Source: Daphnia pulex (Eukaryota > Arthropoda > Branchiopoda > Diplostraca > Daphniidae). Taken from it: a DNA stretch of 64,000 bases. Location of the stretch: NCBI RefSeq assembly GCF_021134715.1, contig NC_060026.1:4092001-4156000 (forward strand), written 5' to 3'. The notes beneath the pieces were generated by a model, which searched no databases, was not told where the DNA came from, and saw only the letters and a list, made by a program, of their open reading frames with translations. This document shows, in pieces, positions 5,561 to 64,000 of the stretch. The translations under genes and the position numbers were made by a program. Each line of letters starts with the position of its first letter. The first letter of the stretch is position 1.

Positions 5561-5662
5561 CGATTTCGGAATTTTCGTCCAAGTTTGGAGTATCCACCGA
5601 CATCTAGCGGGGTTTTCAGAGGTTTTTTTTTTATCACGTTAGATGTCGTTTTCGCGGTTGCT

Positions 5663-6904
5663 GACAGTAGAACTCCAAAGACAGAAGAACTCCACCGACA
5701 AGCCGACAATAGAACCCCAAATAAAATTTTAAAAATAATTTTTTTTTATGTCTTTGTATGCGACAGTAAAACTCCAACGACAGTAGAACTCCAAAGACAT
5801 AAGAACTACTCTTTTAAATATTATTAAAAATACCAGACAATAGAACTCCAGTGCCCGACAGTAGGTATAGAACTCCACTACGCGACAATAGAACTCCAAT
5901 AAATTCATTAATTATTTTCATGTTCGACAATAGAACTCCAACGGTTTTAAAATTACATTCCTCTCGGTCAATCATTTGTCTCTTATTTGCCGGTCTTGCC
6001 GAATGAATCGGATGTATCTCAGAGCAGGAACATGGCATTGTACGGGCAGGTCCAGTGAGTCAACTTTAATCATACCATTGACCCATCACCTTGATCATCG
6101 CCTTTTTTTTAGAAATCATCCCGCCAGATGAATTGATCAATCGCGATCCGGCGTATTTGGCTTACGCGGGACTCGGAATAGCACGAAAATTATCCTCTTC
6201 ACCGATGGCCGGAAAACATTGGTAAATGTTCACAACGAGCCACTGGTGAGCGGTTCGTACGAGCGACTCACGAGACTGTCACAAACGGGAAAGTCGCTGA
6301 AGCTCTTGATCCGGTCCTTGCGTTCGATTCATCCCATGACTGATGTCAAAAGAAGCACCAATAGGATCCTATCAGCGCCAAACGTGACGGTCGCAATAAT
6401 TCCGCGGAAACGATCGGAAACTGGGCGCGCGGATGGCTTCAGGAAACGTGCTGGAGGCTCCAAAGAATTCTTTTTTTCAGGCGGATGGATCCGGATGGCA
6501 TTGGAAATGTTTGACTCCAACTCTGGAGACCGGAATGCGATAGCGTCTTTTGGACACTAGAGCGCACTGCATATTTTATGAAAAGTGGAGTTCTACTGTC
6601 GGGAATAATTTTTGTTGGAGTTCTATTGTCGGACATTTACTGTAATATATTTAAAATTTAATGGAGTTCTATTGTCAAACATGAAAATAATGAAAGCATT
6701 TATTGGAGTTCTATTGCCGCGTAGTAGAGTTCTACTGTCGGGCACTGGAGTTCTATTGTCGGGTATTTTTTTAATAATATTTTAAAAAGGAGTTCTTATG
6801 TCTTTGGAGTTCTACTGTCGTTAGAGTTCACCTGTCGCATACAAAGACATTTTTAAAAATTATTTAAAACATTGGGGTTCTATTGTCGGTGGAGTTCTAC
6901 GGTC
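5663..6904. mobile_element. Foldback-type element with motif-array inverted arms
   Basis: The left arm (about 5663-5940) carries at least nine copies of a 15-bp motif, GACARTAGAACTCCA, at 5663, 5680, 5705, 5762, 5779, 5836, 5857 (interrupted), 5884 and 5926. The right arm (about 6586-6904) carries the reverse complement at 6586, 6616, 6662, 6703, 6725, 6746, 6788, 6805, 6822, 6873 and 6890. Neighbouring copies are often exactly 17 bp apart. The spacers also match between the arms in inverted order, so the arms are true inverted repeats of roughly 280 bp and not only arrays of a shared motif. Such long repetitive arms are typical of foldback transposons. No transposase is visible inside and no clean target-site duplication was found, so the element is probably non-autonomous. 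Its outer ends are approximate. Confidence 0.75.
5941..6585 (+). other. Interior of the foldback element, possible captured gene fragment
   Basis: This middle segment is less AT-rich than the arms and has no copies of the motif. On the plus strand it contains splice-like signals: a GTGAGT at about 6054 followed by a T-run ending in AG near 6112, and a T-run ending in CAG near 6480. The stretch after 6112 is open for about 30 codons (it contains the peptide INRDPAYLAYAGLGIARK) and then stops. A 113-codon frame covers 6219-6560 with no recognisable family. This fits a decayed gene fragment carried by the element, but I could not identify a source gene. Confidence 0.35.
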
Positions 6905-8256: not shown

Positions 8257-8262
8257 TTTATT
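8257..8262 (-). terminator. Poly(A) signal of the prodomain-like gene
   Basis: AATAAA on the minus strand, about 90 bp after the stop codon at 8351. It supports the transcript ending here rather than continuing to a ligand-coding exon. Confidence 0.5.
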
Positions 8263-8350: not shown

Positions 8351-11300
8351 CTAATGTTTTCGGTTGTCTTTATTAGTCCGTGGATAATGTGTCATCTTTG
8401 AATGATGCTGCTGCTGAGGTGGCTGTTGCATCAATCTCTGCATAAAAATTCTGGTAGACCACGACATGTTAGGTGACTCGTCAGCCTCGGGTCGAGTCGT
8501 TTCTTCTTCTTCAGTCTCTCGGAAAAGATCGTGATCTTCTAGAGTTGCTAAGGTTGGCACCGCAGATGAGGTCGGACGATAGTTTGGTGCCTGTTGATTG
8601 CCTGTGCGATGTGACGTCCTGTGCTTCCCTACTGTGGCTGCGCCTAACACTCCGTCGCCCTTCAATGTCCGGAGCACTGCTTCGTCAGCCTGCTCTTCCT
8701 GGGAAGTGTGAATAATACGACTCGAGTGCTGGTGTCGATGCTTGCGCGATGTCGGCTCTTCCAGTATTTCACTCAATGCGTCGAGATCTTCACTGCCGGC
8801 GCTTTCCATTTCGTCAAAACGGCCTTTGATGACACTTGATGGCAACTCGAACACACTCCTACCTTCGGGCATTTCAATGACGGTCAGCTCAAGAACGGGC
8901 GAAGCGATGTTTGTTGGATCGAAAATTTCGTCGGATCGGATGGAACCTATACACAAACATGTAAAGTCATGGACTATTAAATGGATATCCGTTCATATTA
9001 CATAAGTCGTGATTATGGTGGCTAAAACAAAATTAGGGTGGTCTCTTGTATACCTTCATTTTCAGAAGAGCAGTTACGCGATCGGAAAAAGCGGCTAACT
9101 GGCTTGCGCTGGCCGTCTGTATCTTCGACTTCTATCGCGAGCCCAAAGTTACGGCCATCACTGTTAATAATACCTCACGTTTTTCGAGACATACAGTCCT
9201 CGGAAACCGGGCAACTAGAAACGTATATTATAATCTACGATAACCGAGACGTGTTTTCCGTCTCGGAAATCGAGAGTAATAATCGTCCATTCTCATATAA
9301 AAGATTAGACTTCGGTAGGAATTGAACTCGGATCTCCGACATCACAGTCGGATGCTGATCCGCTGTGCCATTTCAATATGTTATAGGGAACAGTACCTTT
9401 TTGATACATTTTAGGCTGTTTTTTTAACTAGACAAAAGGAAGGGAAAAAGTAGGAAACAAAAATTGAGAATGTACATTTTTGGTCGAGACGTGCTATTGA
9501 AAATCGAAGGTTATAACTACCGAAACGGAGAACCTACCGATTTTCGATACATAGTAACAATTTTCGGTAATATGTATTTACCCATAAACGAGACCTTTTT
9601 TAACAGTGCACCTGGAGCTAGCCACCATCGAGCGGCCAGTTTAATGTCCAGCTTCATATAATTCTCTTCTTTAGCCATTGCCATTTGAGAGTCTAACAGC
9701 TTCTTTTTCTGGGCTATTTACATCGCAGAAAAGAAAAGGAGGTTATTTTCGTTGGCAGAAACCAAAAAATATGTTGTAATATTCTACATAAAGTATAATT
9801 TCATATTGCTAGACGCAGATCTCTCAGTATAAGCCTAAAACGAAATATGAGAATAGAAATGCCATATGTACCACGGTTTCGTTTGAGAGCGCGAGTATAA
9901 TTATGAACCGAGACGCGAATTTTCTCTTCGTCCGAAGGCAGCAACGGCGGGTCAAAGAACGGTGCAGCTTTTAGCGTTTGCAGAGGTTGTTCTAGACCCG
10001 CGTATCCTGAGCTGGCATCTACTTTTTCAGGGCCAAAGTTGGCTGAAGGAAACGCCTCTCCCTAAAAAAAAAAATAAATATTGTAGTTAATAACAAGAGC
10101 AATAAATGCGCAATCTATAAAATCACTTCCACATTGGTACAGTTATGTTTGCTTTGGCAATCGTTGTTGGACATACCTCAGCGAATTTAAGTAGACGCAA
10201 TTTAGCTCCAGTGACGTACAGTTGGAAGCCGTCACGAGTCTGAGATTGGATCCCGCTTAGGTTGAAGAACAAATGGAGTGACAGTGGAGTGGATCCTGAC
10301 GACCAGATCTCTTCGTCCGCGTGTTTCGGCCCGTCACCTGTGACATTGAAAACGTGAGAGTCAGGTATGAAATAATTTACATCAAAAGCTATTAAAATTT
10401 CATTCATCGTACATGATGGTTGCAGATAACGAGTGCGTTCCTGAAGGTCGACTGTTGCTTCAGGGCGCTGGAACGGGGAGAAAAATGGGGAAATTGGGGG
10501 AGCACCAGGCGACGTCCCTCCCGATATGGACGGAACTTGAGGACGGCCATTAAGGTTAACAAAACCAAGAACATTTCGGAACACCTCTTGTTTACGTTGG
10601 AGAGCCGACCTAAAAATTAACAATAAAAATCTTTAACATTAACATCATTAACTTCAATTAACAAAAGGATCGGTATGATGAAAGAAGTGAAAAATTAATA
10701 ATATAGATTAACAAAGCGGTATAAAATAGTATAAAATTGATGTGATGAGTTAGTAACAGAACCGCTGTTGGTCTGGGGGAGTTAAACCGTTCAAAAGATA
10801 TGGATACAGCGGTCAAGGTAAGAATTAAGAACAAATAAAATGCAAACTAAAGAGAATGTTCTTATGCAGGTCTCTACGAATCTTTACAGCACTTGCAATT
10901 ACGGATCGTATAATATTTCATATCGAGCCCACATACTTTGGCGTCAAATACAAAATGTTTTCAATCAAACGTAGGAAGCATTAAAAAAACAAAGCAAATA
11001 AAATTGAAATTGAAATATGAATATGACAAGTACAGGAGAGGAGTCTATAATAAATTACTGTATACTGAAACAGACTGTCTAGTAACAATAAATTATCTGA
11101 TTCGATAAAAGATTGAAATAGCTTTGGTCGCGTCTTTAGTGGTACAACGTGTTCACGAAGAGCGTGAATTCATACTGAATATTTTTTTACGACAGCTTAA
11201 ATCATTTCGTTGATAAACGTTTAGATTTTTTATCATATTTTTATTAATTTGGATAAATTTCTCGTAGAAAAACAGTTATAGCATAATATACTACGCTTAC

Positions 11301-14300
11301 ATGAATTTTCCCTTGTTGTTAATCGCTAGACTAATAGTATATTGTGAAGTAAGCCATTTTATCCCCAACAAATTGTTATTAGATTTTTTTACAAAACGTT
11401 ATTTGATAATTTAATTTTAAAAAAAATACTTAAACAAATTCTAATCTTTTTCATGTATCGTTTGATCGAAACATGTGGTAGGGAATTTGAGACTTTTGTA
11501 TGCCATGGGAGGACACAATTGGACCATGGGACACGTGGAGCGTTGGATAAAAATTTATCGGAGCGCGAGATGGGCGCGTGCATCATGCGTCTCCCAGTCG
11601 GGCAGTTCCAGACAAGAAAAACCTGGAGCGGTCTGCTTTTTTTCCCTTGATTTCCGTCACAGACACAACCACACGGGCGCAGAACACGTAATGTAAACAC
11701 AGACGCGTCCATTCTATGACGCACAAACTTATCGGTCCAGACATGCTACTTTTCGACGAACGATGAGGAGCACTGTTTGAAAGCCGAAAACATGCGACGT
11801 TGGGAAAAGCCGAAAAGAAGGAGAGAGGAAGGGGGAAAATGAGAAGGAAAGCGAGACACAAAGGAGATGGAGAAAAAGCAGAAGAGGAAAAAGAGGAAGA
11901 AGAGGGGAGATGGCGGATGGAGGGGGTTTAGAGGAGCGATGAGGAATGCAGACAGGCCGCCACCACCACCAGCCGGCAAGGGGAATGAAGGACAGTGTCG
12001 GCAACACTTCGCACTTCTCAGAAGAGAAGAAGATGAACACAAAACTACCAAAGTCTCTGGCTCTTAAGGGAGGTCCAAACATAAAGGAGGGACCAAGAGG
12101 AGGAGGAGGGGTGAGGGTCAGCATCACACACAAAAAGACGAGTACTACACTATACACTATGCGGGAGGAATAACTCAATAGAAAAAATGTAGAGAAACCG
12201 TGAAATGCTTCCCTGTCGACTTGTTTTTGGTCTTGACCCCACTTTCATTTCACCACTTCCGTTATAGTATAGTGGCTAGTGGCCCACAGTGCCGAGACAT
12301 TTGAAAGGAAGAAGGGGGGGGGGGGGGGGAGAGAGATCTCTGGTATTTTTAGTATTGGTATTTTTCACAAACATCCAGTCGTACCAGGCACGAACGGAGC
12401 TATTGCTGCCCTTTTTGAGGGAGAAACCAGGGGAGAGCCAAAAGGAAACAGAAGGCATGCAGTCATCATCCATGACTGCTATATGTACGAGGCATCCGAC
12501 GGGAAAATGTTGGCGGGAAGCGATAGCGCGGGCATGGCCATTGCGCTGGAAATCGGGGGAATAAACTATAAGAGCTTCACAAAAAGCGTCAATGGGCTCA
12601 TCCATTCATGAACTATTGTGACAAAAAACTGTCTGAGTTCTCTGTGTAGATTGTAAATCGTAGAATAAGAATTGCGTAAATTGTAAGATCCTCGTTGTTT
12701 CTTTCCCATTTTGATGAAAGAGCCGAGATCGGGCAGATCGCCTATAGTTCGTTCCCTTTTCCCCTCCTCTTCCCACCAACCCTTTTTCCATTCTTCCCCA
12801 TTGTACTATGTAGATTGATCGGCCCTTGTCTGCCTCGTGCAGTCTCTACGTCTTTGGAGAAGAAGTGAGTAAATACGAGATTCATTCATCCATCTATTCA
12901 TTCATTCCAACCTAAGAACTAGCTAGCCCCTTCCCGCCGAATACAAATTCAAGATGTCTGCTGTCTGGCCAAAGCCGCAGCGTTACTAAACTTGTAAAAC
13001 AAGAATAGACTACGTAGCTATTGATAAACGACGACAAACTATTCTCGAACTAAATAATTATAGCTTGTATCTAGAATTCCCACAGCAAGTTTGGAAACAC
13101 GCGAATCTTTGCGCGCTTTTAACATGTCGGCTTAATATACGGACTAAAATGTTCGCCTTTTTTGCGCGATAACTCACGTTATAGACGATTATCGCAAAAA
13201 ATTTAAAATACCCTCGTTAAGAGGAAATAATAAGCTTTTACCAAGAATTTTTTTAATATTATGGTAAACTCCCGCAATGCTAAAGTGTGTGTTATTTTTA
13301 AAAAATGCAATTTACATTCAAATATGAAAATTTATATTTAAAGCTAGCACAAACGGTAGATGACATAGCCATCTACAACTGGGTAATTGTAGCGATTCAA
13401 TCACGGTGTAGGTCGTCACACTCTCGGCGGTAAAAGAGACGCCCAGCAGAAGCCAAAAAATCATGACGCTAAAAAAGTCAAGAGTTTTGGCGTGATTATT
13501 ATCGACCCGATTTACCGAATGGCTTTTTTCCTCCCACGACTGAAAGTGGCCACCACTTGACTGGATTGACGCAAACCAAAACTGCCAACAAAAAACAGAC
13601 AAGGCGAGACGTGCCACGGTGTGCCGCGAGCGAAATGTCACAGACATAGATTTGCGCACTCTTTGGCCGTCATCTATTCATACCGGGCACGACATATCTC
13701 AATTTAAAATCGGAGCAACAATCAGCCTTTTGTGTGGGTTGACAAATATTAGGGAATCAAGTGAGTGCATTCAGGGCTTGTTCTTCAAGAGAAAAACTAT
13801 AGCCCGCTCAATTATTCCTTCACTGCTGCGACTATAAATCTACCATCAACTCAAACTAAATAAGCAGTTTAACAGGCTAGACAGGTGACTATAAGTAGGT
13901 CTACACAATATTAGCAAGAAATGTCTATAGCAACGGAAGAAAAGTAATAGCGCTCAGCTACTTTGATGCAACTTCCGGCAGTGGCATGCGCGTCATTCAT
14001 TCGCTAGTTTATTCGAATGAAAAACGGAGCGACGGGTGAATGAATTACCCTTGCAAAATAAACTGGTGCTTTAGTATAGTCTATATATAGCTGTAGCATT
14101 CAGAGCATTCGCATACAAGTTATTATTGCATGTCATTAACTTTTCATTCGCTAAATGACGAGACGAGTCGCCATTCTTCAGAGGCAAGTCAAAATTTCAG
14201 TATAGCGCAAAGCTGTATAAAACATCGCACTACTTTGCTGTTATACAGCCTACTTGCTACTATAGATAGAAATAATACATTGAAATGCTTTTTGCTGAAT

Positions 14301-15703
14301 GCAAGATAATTACGAAATGGGGCATTGTGATGTCAATGTTTCCTTACCTGCTGTTCATATTAACAGCCACATTTGATCTGAAATTTAAAAAAAGGAAACA
14401 ACAACAACAACAGAAAAACTATTTTAGAATCAATCAGAATTTTTAAAAACCTCTACTATATAATAATATAATGGCTATATATATTTGCAATACCTAATAT
14501 ACGCAGTGAAACTAATTAAATAGGCCGGCACTTATTGGAATGAGTAAAAGCCATTTAATCTGTGCAACGTTGACGTCTATAGGTACTGATATCAGTACCT
14601 ATAGATGCCTATCATCATTTATGTTTTTATGAATTTTTCTTACGTACGACAAGGCAATTTACTCGTATCCGATACATCTTATCTTGTCTAAAAATTTATA
14701 TTTCAATTGATATTTCTTATGCCACTTATTATCAATGAATTGGCAAATACGGATTGGCAGATTAATATCATTCAATTTGGAATGTTTGCGTGTCAGCAAC
14801 TTCCTGTGCGTGAGGGATTGCGCCTTTAGCGTTCATGCAATCGAAGTCCGCAATATAGACCCATGAGCCACCCACACAGTGAAATGTAATCAACTAAACG
14901 ACAAAAAGACTAATTATTATACCATCAACCAAAATTAATTAAAGCGAGTTTAGGTGTCTAGGTGATGGGGTGCAACTTAAACAAGTCCTAGGCCTAATCA
15001 AACAAAATCACACAGAAATGATTAACTCCTTTGTTAACTTATATTTACAATCTAAGCAGCAATATCATTTTCTAATTTGAATTTCTAATTACTAATAATG
15101 ATCGTAGAGATCTAATTATTTATTTCCGCAAAACAAGAAACCAAATTATCCCGTTAACAAAAAAAAAGTAAAGCTAAAAAATAAAACAAACAAAATGAGC
15201 CTAATTGCCCGAAATTATTGATACTCCTACATTGTATCGAGTGTAATAGAGAATAAATAATAACGTGATGGACACTCAGGGTGAAAAAAAAGCTTCAACT
15301 ATATTTTAAGAAGCTATTACCTGTTGCGTTGATTAATGATGCTTTGAGCGTCATAAGCGGACGCAGATCCGCCCGCCGCTTCCGGATGAGCAACATGCAG
15401 CGATGAATGCTGATGGTGTTGTTGATGCTGGCGGCTGTTGGTGGGGAAATTGTGATGATTGACACTGCTGGAATGGCGGATGGCGATCTGCTTTTGGCGG
15501 GAGGCTTCGACATCTTCGTTGCTGACGTTGTACAAACGAAGGAGGTCTTCGACGAGCGGCGACGAAGGGGACGAAGCAGAAGGGTCGGCCGCCGTGTCGA
15601 ACAGCGGCAGACACTCGATCGTCGTCAACACATAAACCAGCACGAAACATATCAACAAACGCCGAGCCGCGACTCGCTCCATTGGACAAACAAACGTTTT
15701 CAT
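8351..15703 (-). CDS. Secreted TGF-beta-family prodomain-like protein without a cystine-knot domain
   Basis: Six exons join in consistent phase: 15703-15321, 14377-14348, 10609-10177, 10061-9872, 9713-9612 and 8946-8351, giving 577 aa. Residues 1-31 form a signal peptide with a hydrophobic core near 16-30. The middle resembles a TGF-beta propeptide: LYVTGAKLRLLKF, then IRVSVHNYTR, then KKLLDSQ (349-355) with KLDIKLAARWWL (366-377), then VLELTVIE. This follows the family order of a strand ending in an LRL-type motif, the RLLDSR-like motif, the FDVxxAVxxWL-like helix and the LELxV strand. A minimal furin-type RxxR lies at 447-450. The remaining 127 residues are polar, rich in Glu, His and Gln, and lack cysteine, and the gene then stops. 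Only one cysteine (204) lies outside the signal peptide. Alternatives are a ligand with an unseen alternatively spliced knot exon, or an unrelated secreted protein. Introns are 943, 3738, 115, 158 and 665 bp. Confidence 0.62.
9244..9266. repeat. Perfect 8-bp stem hairpin in an intron
   Basis: CCGAGACG (9244-9251) and CGTCTCGG (9259-9266) flank a 7-nt loop. It lies in the last intron of the prodomain-like gene, close to the tRNA-like segment, and may be part of the same short repeat. Confidence 0.5.
9312..9380 (-). repeat. tRNA-derived sequence (SINE head or tRNA pseudogene)
   Basis: On the minus strand an A-box-like TGGCACAGCGG lies near 9373-9363, an anticodon-arm-like CCGAC/GTCGG stem lies near 9350-9335, and a B-box-like GAGTTCAATTCC lies at 9329-9318. 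The spacing fits a tRNA. The acceptor stem does not pair and the anticodon loop is one base short, so it is not a working tRNA. The best reading is the tRNA-like head of a SINE or a decayed tRNA inside the last intron of the prodomain-like gene. Confidence 0.5.
10610..14347 (-). other. Large second intron of the prodomain-like gene
   Basis: This 3.7-kb intron has no recognised coding exon. A less AT-rich block at about 11450-12800 has GA-rich (11815-11930) and G-run (12314-12331) sequence and several chance frames on both strands. It could hold regulatory sequence or an alternative promoter, but there is no direct evidence. Confidence 0.4.
14348..14377 (-). other. 30-bp micro-exon of the prodomain-like gene
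   Basis: Exon 2 on the minus strand lies between a TTTCAG acceptor and a GTAAGG donor. It encodes ten codons (SNVAVNMNS plus shared bases) and keeps phase 2 on both sides, so it can be skipped without a frameshift. Confidence 0.6.
14576..14605. repeat. Perfect 30-bp palindrome
   Basis: The half-site TCTATAGGTACTGAT (14576-14590) is followed directly by its exact reverse complement (14591-14605), with no spacer and no mismatch. It lies in the first intron of the prodomain-like gene, about 200 bp upstream of the micro-exon. Confidence 0.9.
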
Positions 15704-35835: not shown

Positions 35836-37569
35836 CTAGGTCACAGCGGTATCGGTAAGTACTAACGGGATCGATTGCTTAGCACGCACGACGCGCAAGA
35901 TTTGAACGAACAAAGAAAACGTTACCTTTTTGTGAAGATCGAGGAGCGAGTGAAGGCACGTTGTGAGATCATTGAGCTGAATAAGTTGAGCGGCATCGGC
36001 TAATGAACACTGGGGCGATCCCTGTAGAACTTGATGCATAGCGGCCACAAAGCTCTCTACAGGTTTAGCCAAAACGGTACTAGGACTTTGAGCGTAGCTG
36101 ACGAGCGATGTCGTCGAGGAAGCATTATTATTATTTTCAGCAACTGATGGCACATTAAGATGAGCAGGTACATGGAATTGAGCAGGCGATGAGGTACCCG
36201 ATTTACGGGAAGTAGAAGAACCGGCCGAACTGGTGGCACTGCCGGCCGGATGGTCGCCATCTTCTTCAGCGGGACTAGGCACGGAATGCTGGCTGGTTGG
36301 CGTCAATTGACCACCGTTCACTATCAATGGAGAGACGCCGTCAATAATAGCCTCAACAAATTGTTTCACAAAGTTGGACCTACTCTGATAACGGTAGCTG
36401 TCGACAAGATGGTGGTCGGGACTGGAGATTCGTTCACGTTTGACAGCCGGTGGGTCGTTGGCAACGTGAGCCAGCATTTGTAAATTAGCCTCAATGTCTG
36501 GATGATGGTGATGGCCATTTCCATTGCTGCTGAATGTGCGATTGGACGGAATGGCACGATCGGGATTGGAACGTTTCCTGGGCCGACGTGTCGATCCCGA
36601 CGAAGAACGTGACGCCGGAACAATAGAGAATCGAGAAGTTTGTTCGTTTTGATTAGCGTCCTTGATTAGAGAAGAGGACCCGCCATTCTGTTGTTGCTCC
36701 AATTTTGCTTGATGGCTAATGTTTAATAAAATATGATCAACAATGCTTTGAGCTTTACGACCCTCTGGAATTGCATCATCATCGTGGTCGTTTGGTTCCG
36801 GAGAAGACGATTTCTTCATGGCCAAATCGAGTGCAGAGTCGGCCATCTTGGGCGAAGAAGAACCGCCATTGTGGCGATGGTGGTGATGGTGGTGGTGGTT
36901 CTGCTGTAGGGGGTGGTGTTCAGAGATCGGCGGGAGCTGCAGTTGTTGCTGATGTGCCTGAGGGTTGTTGGCCGAAGAAGAGGATGAGGTGCTGAGGTAG
37001 GGGGAACATCGCGGGACGATGCCCTGGAGGGCGGCGAATGCGCTAGCGATCGACAAACCGCCAGATGGCAATCCTGCAGAATTGCTCAAATCAACTAGGC
37101 CTTTTTCGGCAGCCCACATGGTCAGACTAACTGGAACGGTTGCTGAACGTCGAGATGAAGAATTGCCATTGTTAGCTGCTCTCGATCGAGGTGATGCCGC
37201 CGCCGACGACGTTGATGTTGCGTTGTTGTCGGGAGTAGCCGCTCCCGAACCGTTGCGTTGATTCTTTCTGGCGCCACTGTTTGGTGAGGGCGTTTTAGAT
37301 TGTGTCAAACCCGATTTGGCTTGTGCCATGGCCACCGTGAGCGGGCAAGCGTGCCGTCTCAATCCGCCCGTACCATCTCTCGGCGTGTAGTGAACGGGTT
37401 TGAAACATCCATTACAAACGGCGTAGGGTAAAACGGCACCGTCGACTCTGACACGTTTGAACCAACGCCAAGCTTCCGATTTACCAGCCTCGAATGAAAC
37501 CAATTCCAATCGTGGAGACTTTAACCGGATCATATCAATGATCTCTTGTTTGTCAACCATGCTACTCAT
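35836..37569 (-). CDS. BED-type zinc-finger-like nuclear protein, single coding exon
   Basis: One open frame of 577 aa. The start at 37569 (MSSMVDKQ, AAAATGA context) is preferred; an upstream in-frame ATG at 37596 would add nine residues. Near residues 35-80 there is a BED-like finger: WRWFKRVRVDG, then CNGC, then GTGGLRRHACP, giving Cys-x2-Cys and His-x-Cys ligands with the GT..LRRH signature. The remainder is Ser/Asn/Gln-rich and disordered, with poly-His and poly-Gln tracts, basic clusters (STRRPRKRSN) and a serine-rich linker. Two short helical parts follow (FVKQFVEAIIDGVSPLI and the last 80 residues). This fits a sequence-specific DNA-binding protein, perhaps derived from a transposase as in ZBED proteins. 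I do not recognise the orthologue. A strong donor-like AAAAAG/GTAACG at 35926 could give an alternative C terminus. Confidence 0.72.
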   Translation of the reverse strand: MSSMVDKQEIIDMIRLKSPRLELVSFEAGKSEAWRWFKRVRVDGAVLPYAVCNGCFKPVHYTPRDGTGGLRRHACPLTVAMAQAKSGLTQSKTPSPNSGARKNQRNGSGAATPDNNATSTSSAAASPRSRAANNGNSSSRRSATVPVSLTMWAAEKGLVDLSNSAGLPSGGLSIASAFAALQGIVPRCSPYLSTSSSSSANNPQAHQQQLQLPPISEHHPLQQNHHHHHHHRHNGGSSSPKMADSALDLAMKKSSSPEPNDHDDDAIPEGRKAQSIVDHILLNISHQAKLEQQQNGGSSSLIKDANQNEQTSRFSIVPASRSSSGSTRRPRKRSNPDRAIPSNRTFSSNGNGHHHHPDIEANLQMLAHVANDPPAVKRERISSPDHHLVDSYRYQSRSNFVKQFVEAIIDGVSPLIVNGGQLTPTSQHSVPSPAEEDGDHPAGSATSSAGSSTSRKSGTSSPAQFHVPAHLNVPSVAENNNNASSTTSLVSYAQSPSTVLAKPVESFVAAMHQVLQGSPQCSLADAAQLIQLNDLTTCLHSLLDLHKKVTFSLFVQILRVVRAKQSIPLVLTDTAVT

Positions 37570-39103
37570 TTTCAAAATATTTTTTAAAACAAACAAAATA
37601 ATAATAACAAAATAAAGAGATCACGAAAAAATGGCGCCTTTTGGCGCAAACACACGCACACTCGCACACGAAATATTTTAATCAAAGTTGATTGTAGTAG
37701 GGGTGGGAATAAATTTTCGCGTCAGTTAAAAAAAATTAAACACGACACGTCGAGCGTTCGAAAGCAGAATGACCGTGAGTTCTAGGCTTCGGACTTTTCG
37801 TAGGGATTTGTAGAGGGGGCTGCTTTACACACACACAAGGGGTCGGGGTTGTTAGCCCCCTCCCTTTTTTTCCCTTCCCTTCTCTTTTTTTTTTGGCTCT
37901 TCCCGCCACCCCGCCACCCTCTTGTCAACTTTTATCCGAGCCCCCCTCCTATACCACCCTCCCGGTTGGTTCAACAGCCGCCCGGTTGTTGCTTATGGAT
38001 TCACCCGATTTTCTGTCGACCCACTTCAGAGCAGGCGGGCCCCCAACCCCCCCTTTTTATTTTTCCCTTGCCCTTTTTTCTGTTCTTTCTTTCTTTCTAC
38101 TTTTTACCCTCGTTCGCTTCTTCCTTCCATTCCGGGGGTACAGCAACACAAAGGGGCCCCCCCTCTACCCCTCGGCCGCCCGATTCCCGTTTCCTCCTCC
38201 TCTTCTTCTTCTTCTTCCCCCCTCCTTTTGACCAGATATCGGATGGCTTCGCTTCACGAAAAGCATCCCCCCCCCTCTTATTCTACCCCCCTACCTCCTT
38301 GCGCTTTTTCTCCACTGACCTCTGGACGACTGACCGAAAAAAATAATGCGGCCAAATGTCGGCCATCTTGGATGCGAAAAAAGATAAAAATTCGATTTTT
38401 AAATTAGACGTTCAAAATTATTTGTCGTGAATAGTACCGACCAAATTGTTACCCTCATATTTACAAATTTGGTATCCCCTTACTTTTATTTAAGAAAATT
38501 TTCGTTCTGTCTGCCGACCGAGCAAACAAATATAAAAATCCTTGGGCCCCCCCTTTTAAGTTTTAGTTTTTTATTGTGGAAAATTTGACCGCCGCCCTCT
38601 GGCGACCGGGAGCCGGGGGTAAAGAAGAAAAAAAGGTTTTTTTTTTTACCCAGCCCCCCTCCCGCAGCCTAGTTCTTCCAACCGACATTTTCTCTGCCCC
38701 CCCATTTCTTTTTTTTTCCCAAAAAGTTCTCCTCCCAGAAAATAAAAAGGGGCTTTTAAATGGATGACAAGAGTTTTCTTCTTCTTCCATCTCCTATTTT
38801 TATTATTCTTTGACCATCACCAGATGCAAGAAACGGAATTGAAGAGGAAGAAGGTCATTCTAGGTCGTTCCCACCCACCGGAATGTTTTTTCCGAACCAT
38901 CCCGAAAATGACCATCATGTTTTTCCATTGCGTCATTAAGGTCATCTTCTATGGAAAAACGTTTACGCGGAAATTGGGGGAATAAATTGGAAGCTTCCAA
39001 GGTTGTTGTTGAGTGGACTGCCGTTGTCATGACAACTTGTTACCGTTCATAACAAATCCCGCGGGTTTTGCTCTCAGACGGCCATTGAAAACCAAGTTCT
39101 ACG
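37570..39103. promoter_or_regulatory. Divergent intergenic region between the BED-like gene and ARL6
   Basis: The two genes start on opposite strands, so both promoters lie here. The centre (37850-38330) is strongly pyrimidine-rich on the plus strand and contains only low-complexity frames. No TATA box or other site could be assigned. Confidence 0.4.

Positions 39104-53603: not shown

Positions 53604-64000
<10,397 letters not shown>

What the first reader, a model, noticed from the sequence alone, without database searches (positions are those of the whole stretch)
8351..15703. TGF-beta prodomain-like secreted protein that lacks the ligand domain
Six exons join in phase to a 577-aa secreted protein whose middle follows the TGF-beta propeptide pattern (LRL strand, KKLLDSQ, KLDIKLAARWWL, VLELTVIE). 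After a minimal RxxR site at 447-450 there are 127 polar residues with no cysteine, then a stop and an AATAAA about 90 bp later. Only one cysteine lies outside the signal peptide. A free-standing prodomain could act as a ligand antagonist, chaperone or matrix tether. I know of no named arthropod protein of this type, but could not search.
Basis: partly seen in the sequence, partly recalled or inferred. Interest (0 to 1): 0.75.

Follow-up and report, generated by a model that had tools for sequence, protein, structure and literature searches.

The report
Stand-alone TGF-beta prodomain-like protein
A genome that is probably a water flea's carries two copies of a gene for an apparently secreted protein that resembles the regulatory half of a TGF-beta growth factor but has no growth-factor half, so it may control other growth factors from outside the cell.

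Summary
Its six-exon, 577-aa model is reproduced exactly, but one "exon" keeps a 75-nt intron; a second gene copy on contig C2 shows that intron must be removed there. The better model has seven exons and 552 or 562 aa. The second copy is 79-89% identical in the six exons that could be seen, so this is not an annotation artefact. The middle is a divergent TGF-beta prodomain arm. PF00688 is the only Pfam hit on three trimmed fragments with the whole arm core (E about 7e-4, below Pfam's cut-off); the full-length protein gives none. A profile of four prodomain-arm fragments from the same genome ranks exon 6 first of 2731 window frames. No ligand domain was detected in the window, and none of 12 genome-wide ligand matches is on either contig carrying a copy. 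A straitjacket, the inhibitory part of known prodomains, could not be shown. Best reading: a stand-alone, prodomain-like extracellular modulator of TGF-beta/BMP/activin ligands. The mechanism is inferred. Other animal genomes, transcripts and the second copy's DNA could not be examined.

The parts
15321..15703 (-). exon 1: start codon, hydrophobic signal-like segment (aa 1-31), N-terminal region with PLVEDLLRLY (aa 49-58), resembling prodomain alpha2 by eye
   Evidence: second copy 83% identical over query aa 1-130
14348..14377 (-). exon 2: 30-nt in-phase micro-exon (aa 128-137); weakest exon call
   Evidence: acceptor TTTAAATTTCAG and donor GTAAGG; not seen in the second copy, where the search may miss so short an exon
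10413..10609 (-). exon 3: FRNVLGFVNLNGRP (aa 148-161), resembling alpha1/latency lasso by eye, not supported by profile
   Evidence: second copy 88% identical
   Evidence: frame change between exons 3 and 4 in the second copy
10177..10337 (-). exon 4: start of the arm (LHLFFNLS, AKLRLLKF)
   Evidence: PF00688 and hhalign ranges begin here; second copy 88% identical
9872..10061 (-). exon 5: long loop plus strand EEKIRVSVHNY
   Evidence: second copy 79% identical
9582..9713 (-). exon 6: KKLLDSQ...YMKLDIKLAARWWL, the arm core; alternative donor after 9612
   Evidence: best of 2731 window frames with the prodomain-arm profile; best in 4 of 4 leave-one-out profiles; second copy 89% identical up to residue 356
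8351..8946 (-). exon 7: hydrophobic strand SPVLELTVIE, acidic linker, RKHR at 8746-8735, 127-aa cysteine-free tail (8734-8354), stop codon
   Evidence: second copy 79% identical over query aa 364-561 of 562, no stop inside
8257..8262 (-). AATAAA polyadenylation signal, 88 nt after the stop

Best explanation
This is a working, duplicated animal gene for a secreted stand-alone relative of the TGF-beta prodomain, with an arm (shoulder) domain and no cystine-knot ligand. It most likely binds TGF-beta/BMP/activin-family growth factors, or their precursors, non-covalently outside the cell or in the secretory pathway, and changes their assembly, spread or availability. The cysteine-free tail after RKHR may bind matrix or be clipped off. 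Shown here: the gene model in outline, the second copy, the arm similarity, and no ligand domain detected. Inferred: secretion, binding partner, direction of effect, cleavage. My confidence is about 0.85 for 'stand-alone prodomain-arm protein' and about 0.4 for the modulator mechanism; the figure given is for the whole statement.
For: PF00688 is the only Pfam family reported for the three trimmed fragments that hold the whole arm core (E 0.00072, 0.00087, 0.0006; 19.5-20.0 bits). As a yardstick in the same scan, a true 55-aa arm fragment of the C12 gene scores 18.5 bits and a dpp-like arm 62.7. An HMM from four TGF-beta prodomain-arm fragments of the same genome gives 20.5 bits for the fragment and 17.8 for the full protein; the best of 2000 shuffles is 6.6 (1381 of the 2000 were reported with a score); reversed sequences score -0.9 and -0.5. 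In a scan of all 2731 window frames of 15 aa or more, exon 6 is first (E 5.8e-4; next 0.81) and stays first in 4 of 4 leave-one-out profiles (margins 12.4 v 7.2, 19.6 v 6.6, 11.0 v 8.8, 14.3 v 9.9 bits). hhalign P 2.9e-5, probability 73.8%. The profile is a sound prodomain profile: it finds solved TGF-beta2, BMP10, BMP9 and inhibin beta A precursors. The second copy on C2 is 79-89% identical in six exons, with different intron lengths. No ligand detected: best window match E 0.67; 0 of 12 genome-wide PF00019 matches on C10 or C2, while 4 of 4 genes with PF00688 matches have a PF00019 match within 2 kb.
Against: The full-length protein also holds the arm core but has no PF00688 hit even at E 10; all three fragment hits are below the curated cut-off of 25.8 bits; a shorter fragment that starts at EEKIRVSV misses PF00688; and the exon-by-exon PF00688 search of the genome lists neither copy. 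In leave-one-out tests the query (14.5, 21.5, 14.9, 18.1 bits) scores below the held-out true member each time (37.4, 34.7, 23.9, 18.2). The profile has only four, fragmentary rows. The near-universal first tryptophan of the arm core is Tyr339, and the F and T after it are L and K. Whether SPVLELTVIE is the strand after alpha4 or the last strand of the arm is by eye; no profile alignment reached it. The alpha1/lasso/alpha2 profile scores -0.4 bits, inside the shuffle range. AlphaFold2 on single sequences failed (pLDDT 43.6 and 42.1) and its fold search found nothing (best E 2.9). There is no transcript, binding or expression evidence.
Confidence: 0.43

Rival explanations
1. A former TGF-beta family gene that lost its ligand and whose arm is now an inert or structural extracellular scaffold; the tail or the N-terminal region does the work (matrix or surface binding), with no role in TGF-beta signalling.
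For: The arm is divergent (below the Pfam cut-off), no straitjacket is detected, and exon 7, most of it tail and linker, is kept at 79% identity in the second copy. Conservation does not single out the arm: exon 5 is also at 79% and exon 3, outside the arm, is at 88%.
Against: Two of the three inner arm exons (4 and 6; 88 and 89%) are among the best conserved, which fits an arm that is used.
Confidence: 0.27
2. A precursor of a secreted, unstructured peptide: cleavage at RKHR releases the 127-residue tail as the active product, with the prodomain-like part as its carrier.
For: RKHR sits after the arm, where a TGF-beta precursor would be cut; the second copy's match runs through exon 7 to query residue 561 of 562.
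Against: RKHR is a minimal site (His before the last Arg); the tail is polar with no cysteine. Whether the second copy keeps RKHR itself could not be read.
Confidence: 0.12
3. Chance resemblance: an unrelated secreted protein.
For: Sub-threshold Pfam score and no full-length hit; pairwise score with one of four own-genome arms (gbb-like) no better than 99 of 1000 shuffles.
Against: 0 of 1000 shuffles reach the score with the dpp-like and the C11 arms, 10 of 1000 with the C12 arm; window scan and leave-one-out.
Confidence: 0.1
4. A ligand-bearing gene after all: the cystine-knot exon lies elsewhere or is reached by alternative splicing.
For: Intron 2 is long (3738 nt), and no transcripts could be examined.
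Against: Stop and polyadenylation signals follow the arm. The ligand HMM finds nothing in the window (best E 0.67), and Pfam's ligand model finds none on contigs C10 or C2 among the candidates it scored, although it recovers ligands split over two exons elsewhere.
Confidence: 0.04

Closest known systems
TGF-beta family precursors (prodomain plus ligand; Pfam PF00688 + PF00019)
   Same: Signal-like N-terminus; arm-core motifs (FFNLS, A-x-LRL, VSVHNY, LLDS, aromatic-x-K-L-D-I, W at the end of alpha4); an RxxR after the arm. The checklist of conserved features is from PMC7017013 (outline with abstract, and sections 26 and 28, read); matching it to this protein is by eye.
   Different: No cystine-knot ligand detected; cysteine-free tail instead; straitjacket not detected by profile.
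Free myostatin prodomain as ligand inhibitor (PMC4520684, passages seen)
   Same: A prodomain acting apart from its ligand is a known way to regulate TGF-beta family members.
   Different: That prodomain comes from a ligand precursor and inhibits through a 29-residue alpha1/lasso core, whose removal abolishes inhibition; no such core was demonstrable here.
Pro-activin A shoulder domain (PMC4932183, passages seen)
   Same: The shoulder domain (two beta sheets and a helix) is the part that the window protein resembles by sequence.
   Different: The pro-activin shoulder acts with a forearm that wraps the ligand; here the forearm is uncertain and no ligand was found.
Nord, a Drosophila BMP modulator (PMC8856659, search listing only)
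   Same: A secreted arthropod protein that tunes BMP signalling without being a ligand.
   Different: The listing calls it NDNF-like; no relation to prodomains was looked for.

Membership tests
TGF-beta propeptide (PF00688) | curated Pfam score of at least 25.8 bits for the protein | tested here: not met
   Full length: no hit at E up to 10. Three fragments with the arm core: 19.5-20.0 bits, E 0.0006-0.0009.
TGF-beta propeptide (PF00688) | arm-domain sequence similarity above chance | tested here: met
   pairwise in 3 of 4 arms.
TGF-beta propeptide (PF00688) | straitjacket: alpha1, latency lasso, alpha2 | tested here: inconclusive
   The alpha1-alpha2 profile (three rows) gives -0.4 bits; best of 2000 shuffles 6.7. 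Motif patterns written after seeing the sequence match at 148-161 and 49-58, in reversed order: 35 and 13 of 10000 shuffles of residues 33-204, 195 and 55 of 10000 over residues 33-562; the alpha1 pattern missed 1 of 3 true members and the alpha2 pattern 1 of 4.
TGF-beta propeptide (PF00688) | shoulder fold | tested here: inconclusive
   AlphaFold2 without an alignment: pLDDT 43.6 and 42.1; Foldseek best E 2.9.
TGF-beta superfamily ligand precursor | cystine-knot ligand domain (PF00019) after the cleavage site | tested here: not met
   Tail without cysteine, no ligand exon detected in the window, none of 12 matches on C10 or C2.
Secreted protein | signal peptide and no further membrane span | tested here: inconclusive
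   Hydrophobic segment 16-30 (LLICFVLVYVLTTIE); the most hydrophobic later 19-mer averages only 0.87. No signal-peptide predictor available.
TGF-beta ligand antagonist | binds a ligand and lowers signalling | not testable with these tools
   Needs protein biochemistry.

The most novel reading that the evidence does not exclude
A lineage of arthropods has freed the TGF-beta prodomain from its ligand and keeps it, in two gene copies, as a dedicated extracellular regulator that chaperones, shuttles or sequesters ligands made by other genes, with a tail that replaced the ligand.
Probability: 0.33. Interest if true: 0.8.

Novelty: new variant of a known kind. Interest (0 to 1): 0.58.

Why it matters
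Prodomains are normally read as accessory parts of a ligand precursor. A gene that keeps the prodomain arm alone, in two conserved copies, would make it possible to ask what a prodomain does without its own ligand. It would also add a class of extracellular TGF-beta/BMP modulator that ligand-based annotation cannot see, because the arm falls below Pfam's threshold.

Tried and rejected

Tried without result: NCBIfam (0 families; a bacterial and archaeal library, so uninformative); PDB by sequence (0 hits); viral contigs for relatives (5 stretches matched a pattern, none encodes a relative); AlphaFold2 on single sequences and one Foldseek search. My by-eye claim of a straitjacket was tested and not supported by profile; the two motif patterns were written after seeing the sequence, and each missed one known member.

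Noted but given no weight: the activin-like gene on C12 has an intron in the same codon column as intron 5, but in phase 0 rather than 1 (by eye). The end of the protein (exon 7) echoes DUF6432 in Pfam (E 0.15 and 0.071), taken as chance.

Literature: 10 searches. In the rows listed I saw no title or abstract start that describes a stand-alone TGF-beta prodomain gene in an arthropod. The lists were cut (20 of 55; 12 of 45; 15 of 57; 3 of 31469; badly framed, told nothing; 12 of 49); one search returned 0 papers. The library lacks most subscription journals. Passages of PMC8256442 were seen and had no 'prodomain' or 'propeptide'.

I therefore lowered the best explanation from 0.45 to 0.43 and the novel case from 0.35 to 0.33, and raised the inert-scaffold rival from 0.25 to 0.27.

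Not done: the second copy's DNA could not be fetched, so there is no dN/dS, no check of RKHR, Cys204 or exon 2 in it, and no gene neighbourhood. No search of other animal genomes was possible with the tools held.
Full report
Where it is. The window lies at C10:4092001-4156000 of a genome of 133.19 Mb in 13 contigs. Size and contig number fit Daphnia pulex from recollection; no call names the species. The gene runs on the minus strand from 15703 to 8351.

The observation. I rebuilt the gene from splice sites. With seven exons and GT-AG introns (15703-15321, 14377-14348, 10609-10413, 10337-10177, 10061-9872, 9713-9582, 8946-8351) it gives 562 aa. In the second copy the stretches matching exons 3 and 4 are 68 nt apart and differ by 2 in frame, so an intron must be removed there; in the window they share one frame (coordinates, arithmetic). 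The end of exon 6 is open: the short donor gives 552 aa and the long one 562. The second copy's match ends at residue 356, one residue past the short donor, and the arm score is hardly affected (21.0 against 20.5 bits).

It is a real gene. One search of the own genome found a second locus on C2 (8377250-8389141, plus strand) with six of the seven exons; exon 2, 30 nt, was not seen and may be too short. Identities of exons 1 and 3-7 are 83, 88, 88, 79, 89 and 79%. Intron lengths differ, for example about 9.4 kb between exons 1 and 3 there against 4.7 kb here. The last exon matches query residues 364-561 of 562 without a stop inside. Conservation in the exons but not in intron length argues for selection on the protein, but I could not fetch the DNA for dN/dS.

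Is it a prodomain? The full-length protein has no Pfam hit to PF00688 at E 10, and the exon-by-exon PF00688 search of the genome lists neither copy among its six matches. Four trimmed fragments that include exon 6 were scanned. The three that hold the whole arm core hit PF00688 alone, at E 0.00072, 0.00087 and 0.0006, under the curated cut-off. The fourth, shorter fragment, which starts after the first strands, did not hit it (protein 2). In all three hits the match begins at profile position 109-111, so it is the arm, not the straitjacket.

Because trimming is a choice, I ran tests that do not depend on it. I read TGF-beta prodomain exons from the same genome, built a profile from four arm fragments and scanned 2731 six-frame segments of the window (all of 15 aa or more): exon 6 came first (E 5.8e-4), the next at 0.81. 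It came first in 4 of 4 leave-one-out profiles, in one of them by only 11.0 against 8.8 bits. In those tests the query scored 14.5, 21.5, 14.9 and 18.1 bits, and the held-out true members 37.4, 34.7, 23.9 and 18.2, so it is about as far out as the most divergent true member. The best of 2000 shuffles was 6.6 bits (1381 reported with a score) against 20.5 for the fragment and 17.8 for the full protein; reversed sequences scored below zero. hhalign gave P 2.9e-5. Pairwise, 0 of 1000 shuffles matched the score with the dpp-like and the C11 arms, 10 of 1000 with the C12 arm and 99 of 1000 with the gbb-like arm, so the last is no support. The four-row profile is a sound prodomain profile: it finds solved TGF-beta2, BMP10, BMP9 and inhibin beta A precursors.

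Against the published checklist (PMC7017013, outline with abstract and sections 26 and 28 read), matched by eye, the arm has the second near-universal tryptophan and the core aspartate. It has Tyr for the first tryptophan, and Leu and Lys for the core Phe and Thr. SPVLELTVIE looks like a late arm strand with its proline, but no profile alignment reached it. In that paper alpha1, the latency lasso, alpha2, beta6 to alpha4 and beta10 are the best-conserved features. The straitjacket is not shown here: its profile scored -0.4 bits, with shuffles up to 6.7. By eye FRNVLGFVNLNGRP and PLVEDLLRLY look like alpha1-lasso and alpha2, but the patterns were written after the fact and the two stand in reversed order. 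Structure prediction without relatives was not usable.

No ligand detected. Pfam's ligand model finds 12 matches at eight loci in the genome, on C3, C5, C7, C11 and C12, none on C10 or C2. All four genes with a PF00688 match have a ligand match within 2 kb. A profile from the eight ligands finds nothing in the window (best E 0.67). The genome search scores only the best candidates, so this is strong but not complete.

How it may work. Known prodomains can act apart from their ligand. The myostatin prodomain inhibits through a 29-residue alpha1/lasso core whose removal abolishes inhibition (PMC4520684, passages seen), and the pro-activin A prodomain holds its ligand with an affinity of about 5 nM (PMC4932183, passages seen). 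By analogy the likeliest role is a secreted binding partner of other TGF-beta-family ligands or precursors. Because the inhibitory core is not demonstrable here, a chaperone, dimer-partner or tether role is as likely as simple antagonism. All of this is inference.

Verdict. The thing is real, conserved in a second copy and unusual. The prodomain reading is well supported for the arm, but not to the standard of formal family membership, and the function is open. I rate it a new variant of a known kind.

Noticed in passing
window 5660-6900: Foldback, transposon-like element: a motif of about 16 bp (CGACAATAGAACTCCA) recurs in one half and its complement in the other; the three longest arm pairs are 86-97% complementary, e.g. 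5725-5830 with 6768-6873.
   Followed up: partly
window about 9310-9385 (- strand, intron 6): Sequence resembling a tRNA-derived short interspersed element by eye (box A- and box B-like stretches); ARAGORN reports no tRNA in the window.
   Followed up: no
window 35842-37620 (- strand): 593-residue open frame with a BED-finger-like N-terminus (by eye) and a long low-complexity remainder; no Pfam family at E 0.01.
   Followed up: partly
window 10338-10412 (- strand): An intron that is open and in frame with both flanking exons (75 nt); its counterpart in the second copy is about 68 nt and breaks the frame, so a frame-keeping retained-intron isoform is possible in this copy but not in the other.
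   Followed up: partly
window 59930-62391 (+ strand): Guanylate-kinase-like and WW-domain segments close together, as in MAGI-type scaffold proteins (the MAGI name is recalled).
   Followed up: no
G000 C12:8361365-8364487 (L015): Activin-like ligand gene (by-eye label) whose intron before the arm core falls in the same codon column as intron 5 of the window gene, but in phase 0 rather than 1.
   Followed up: partly
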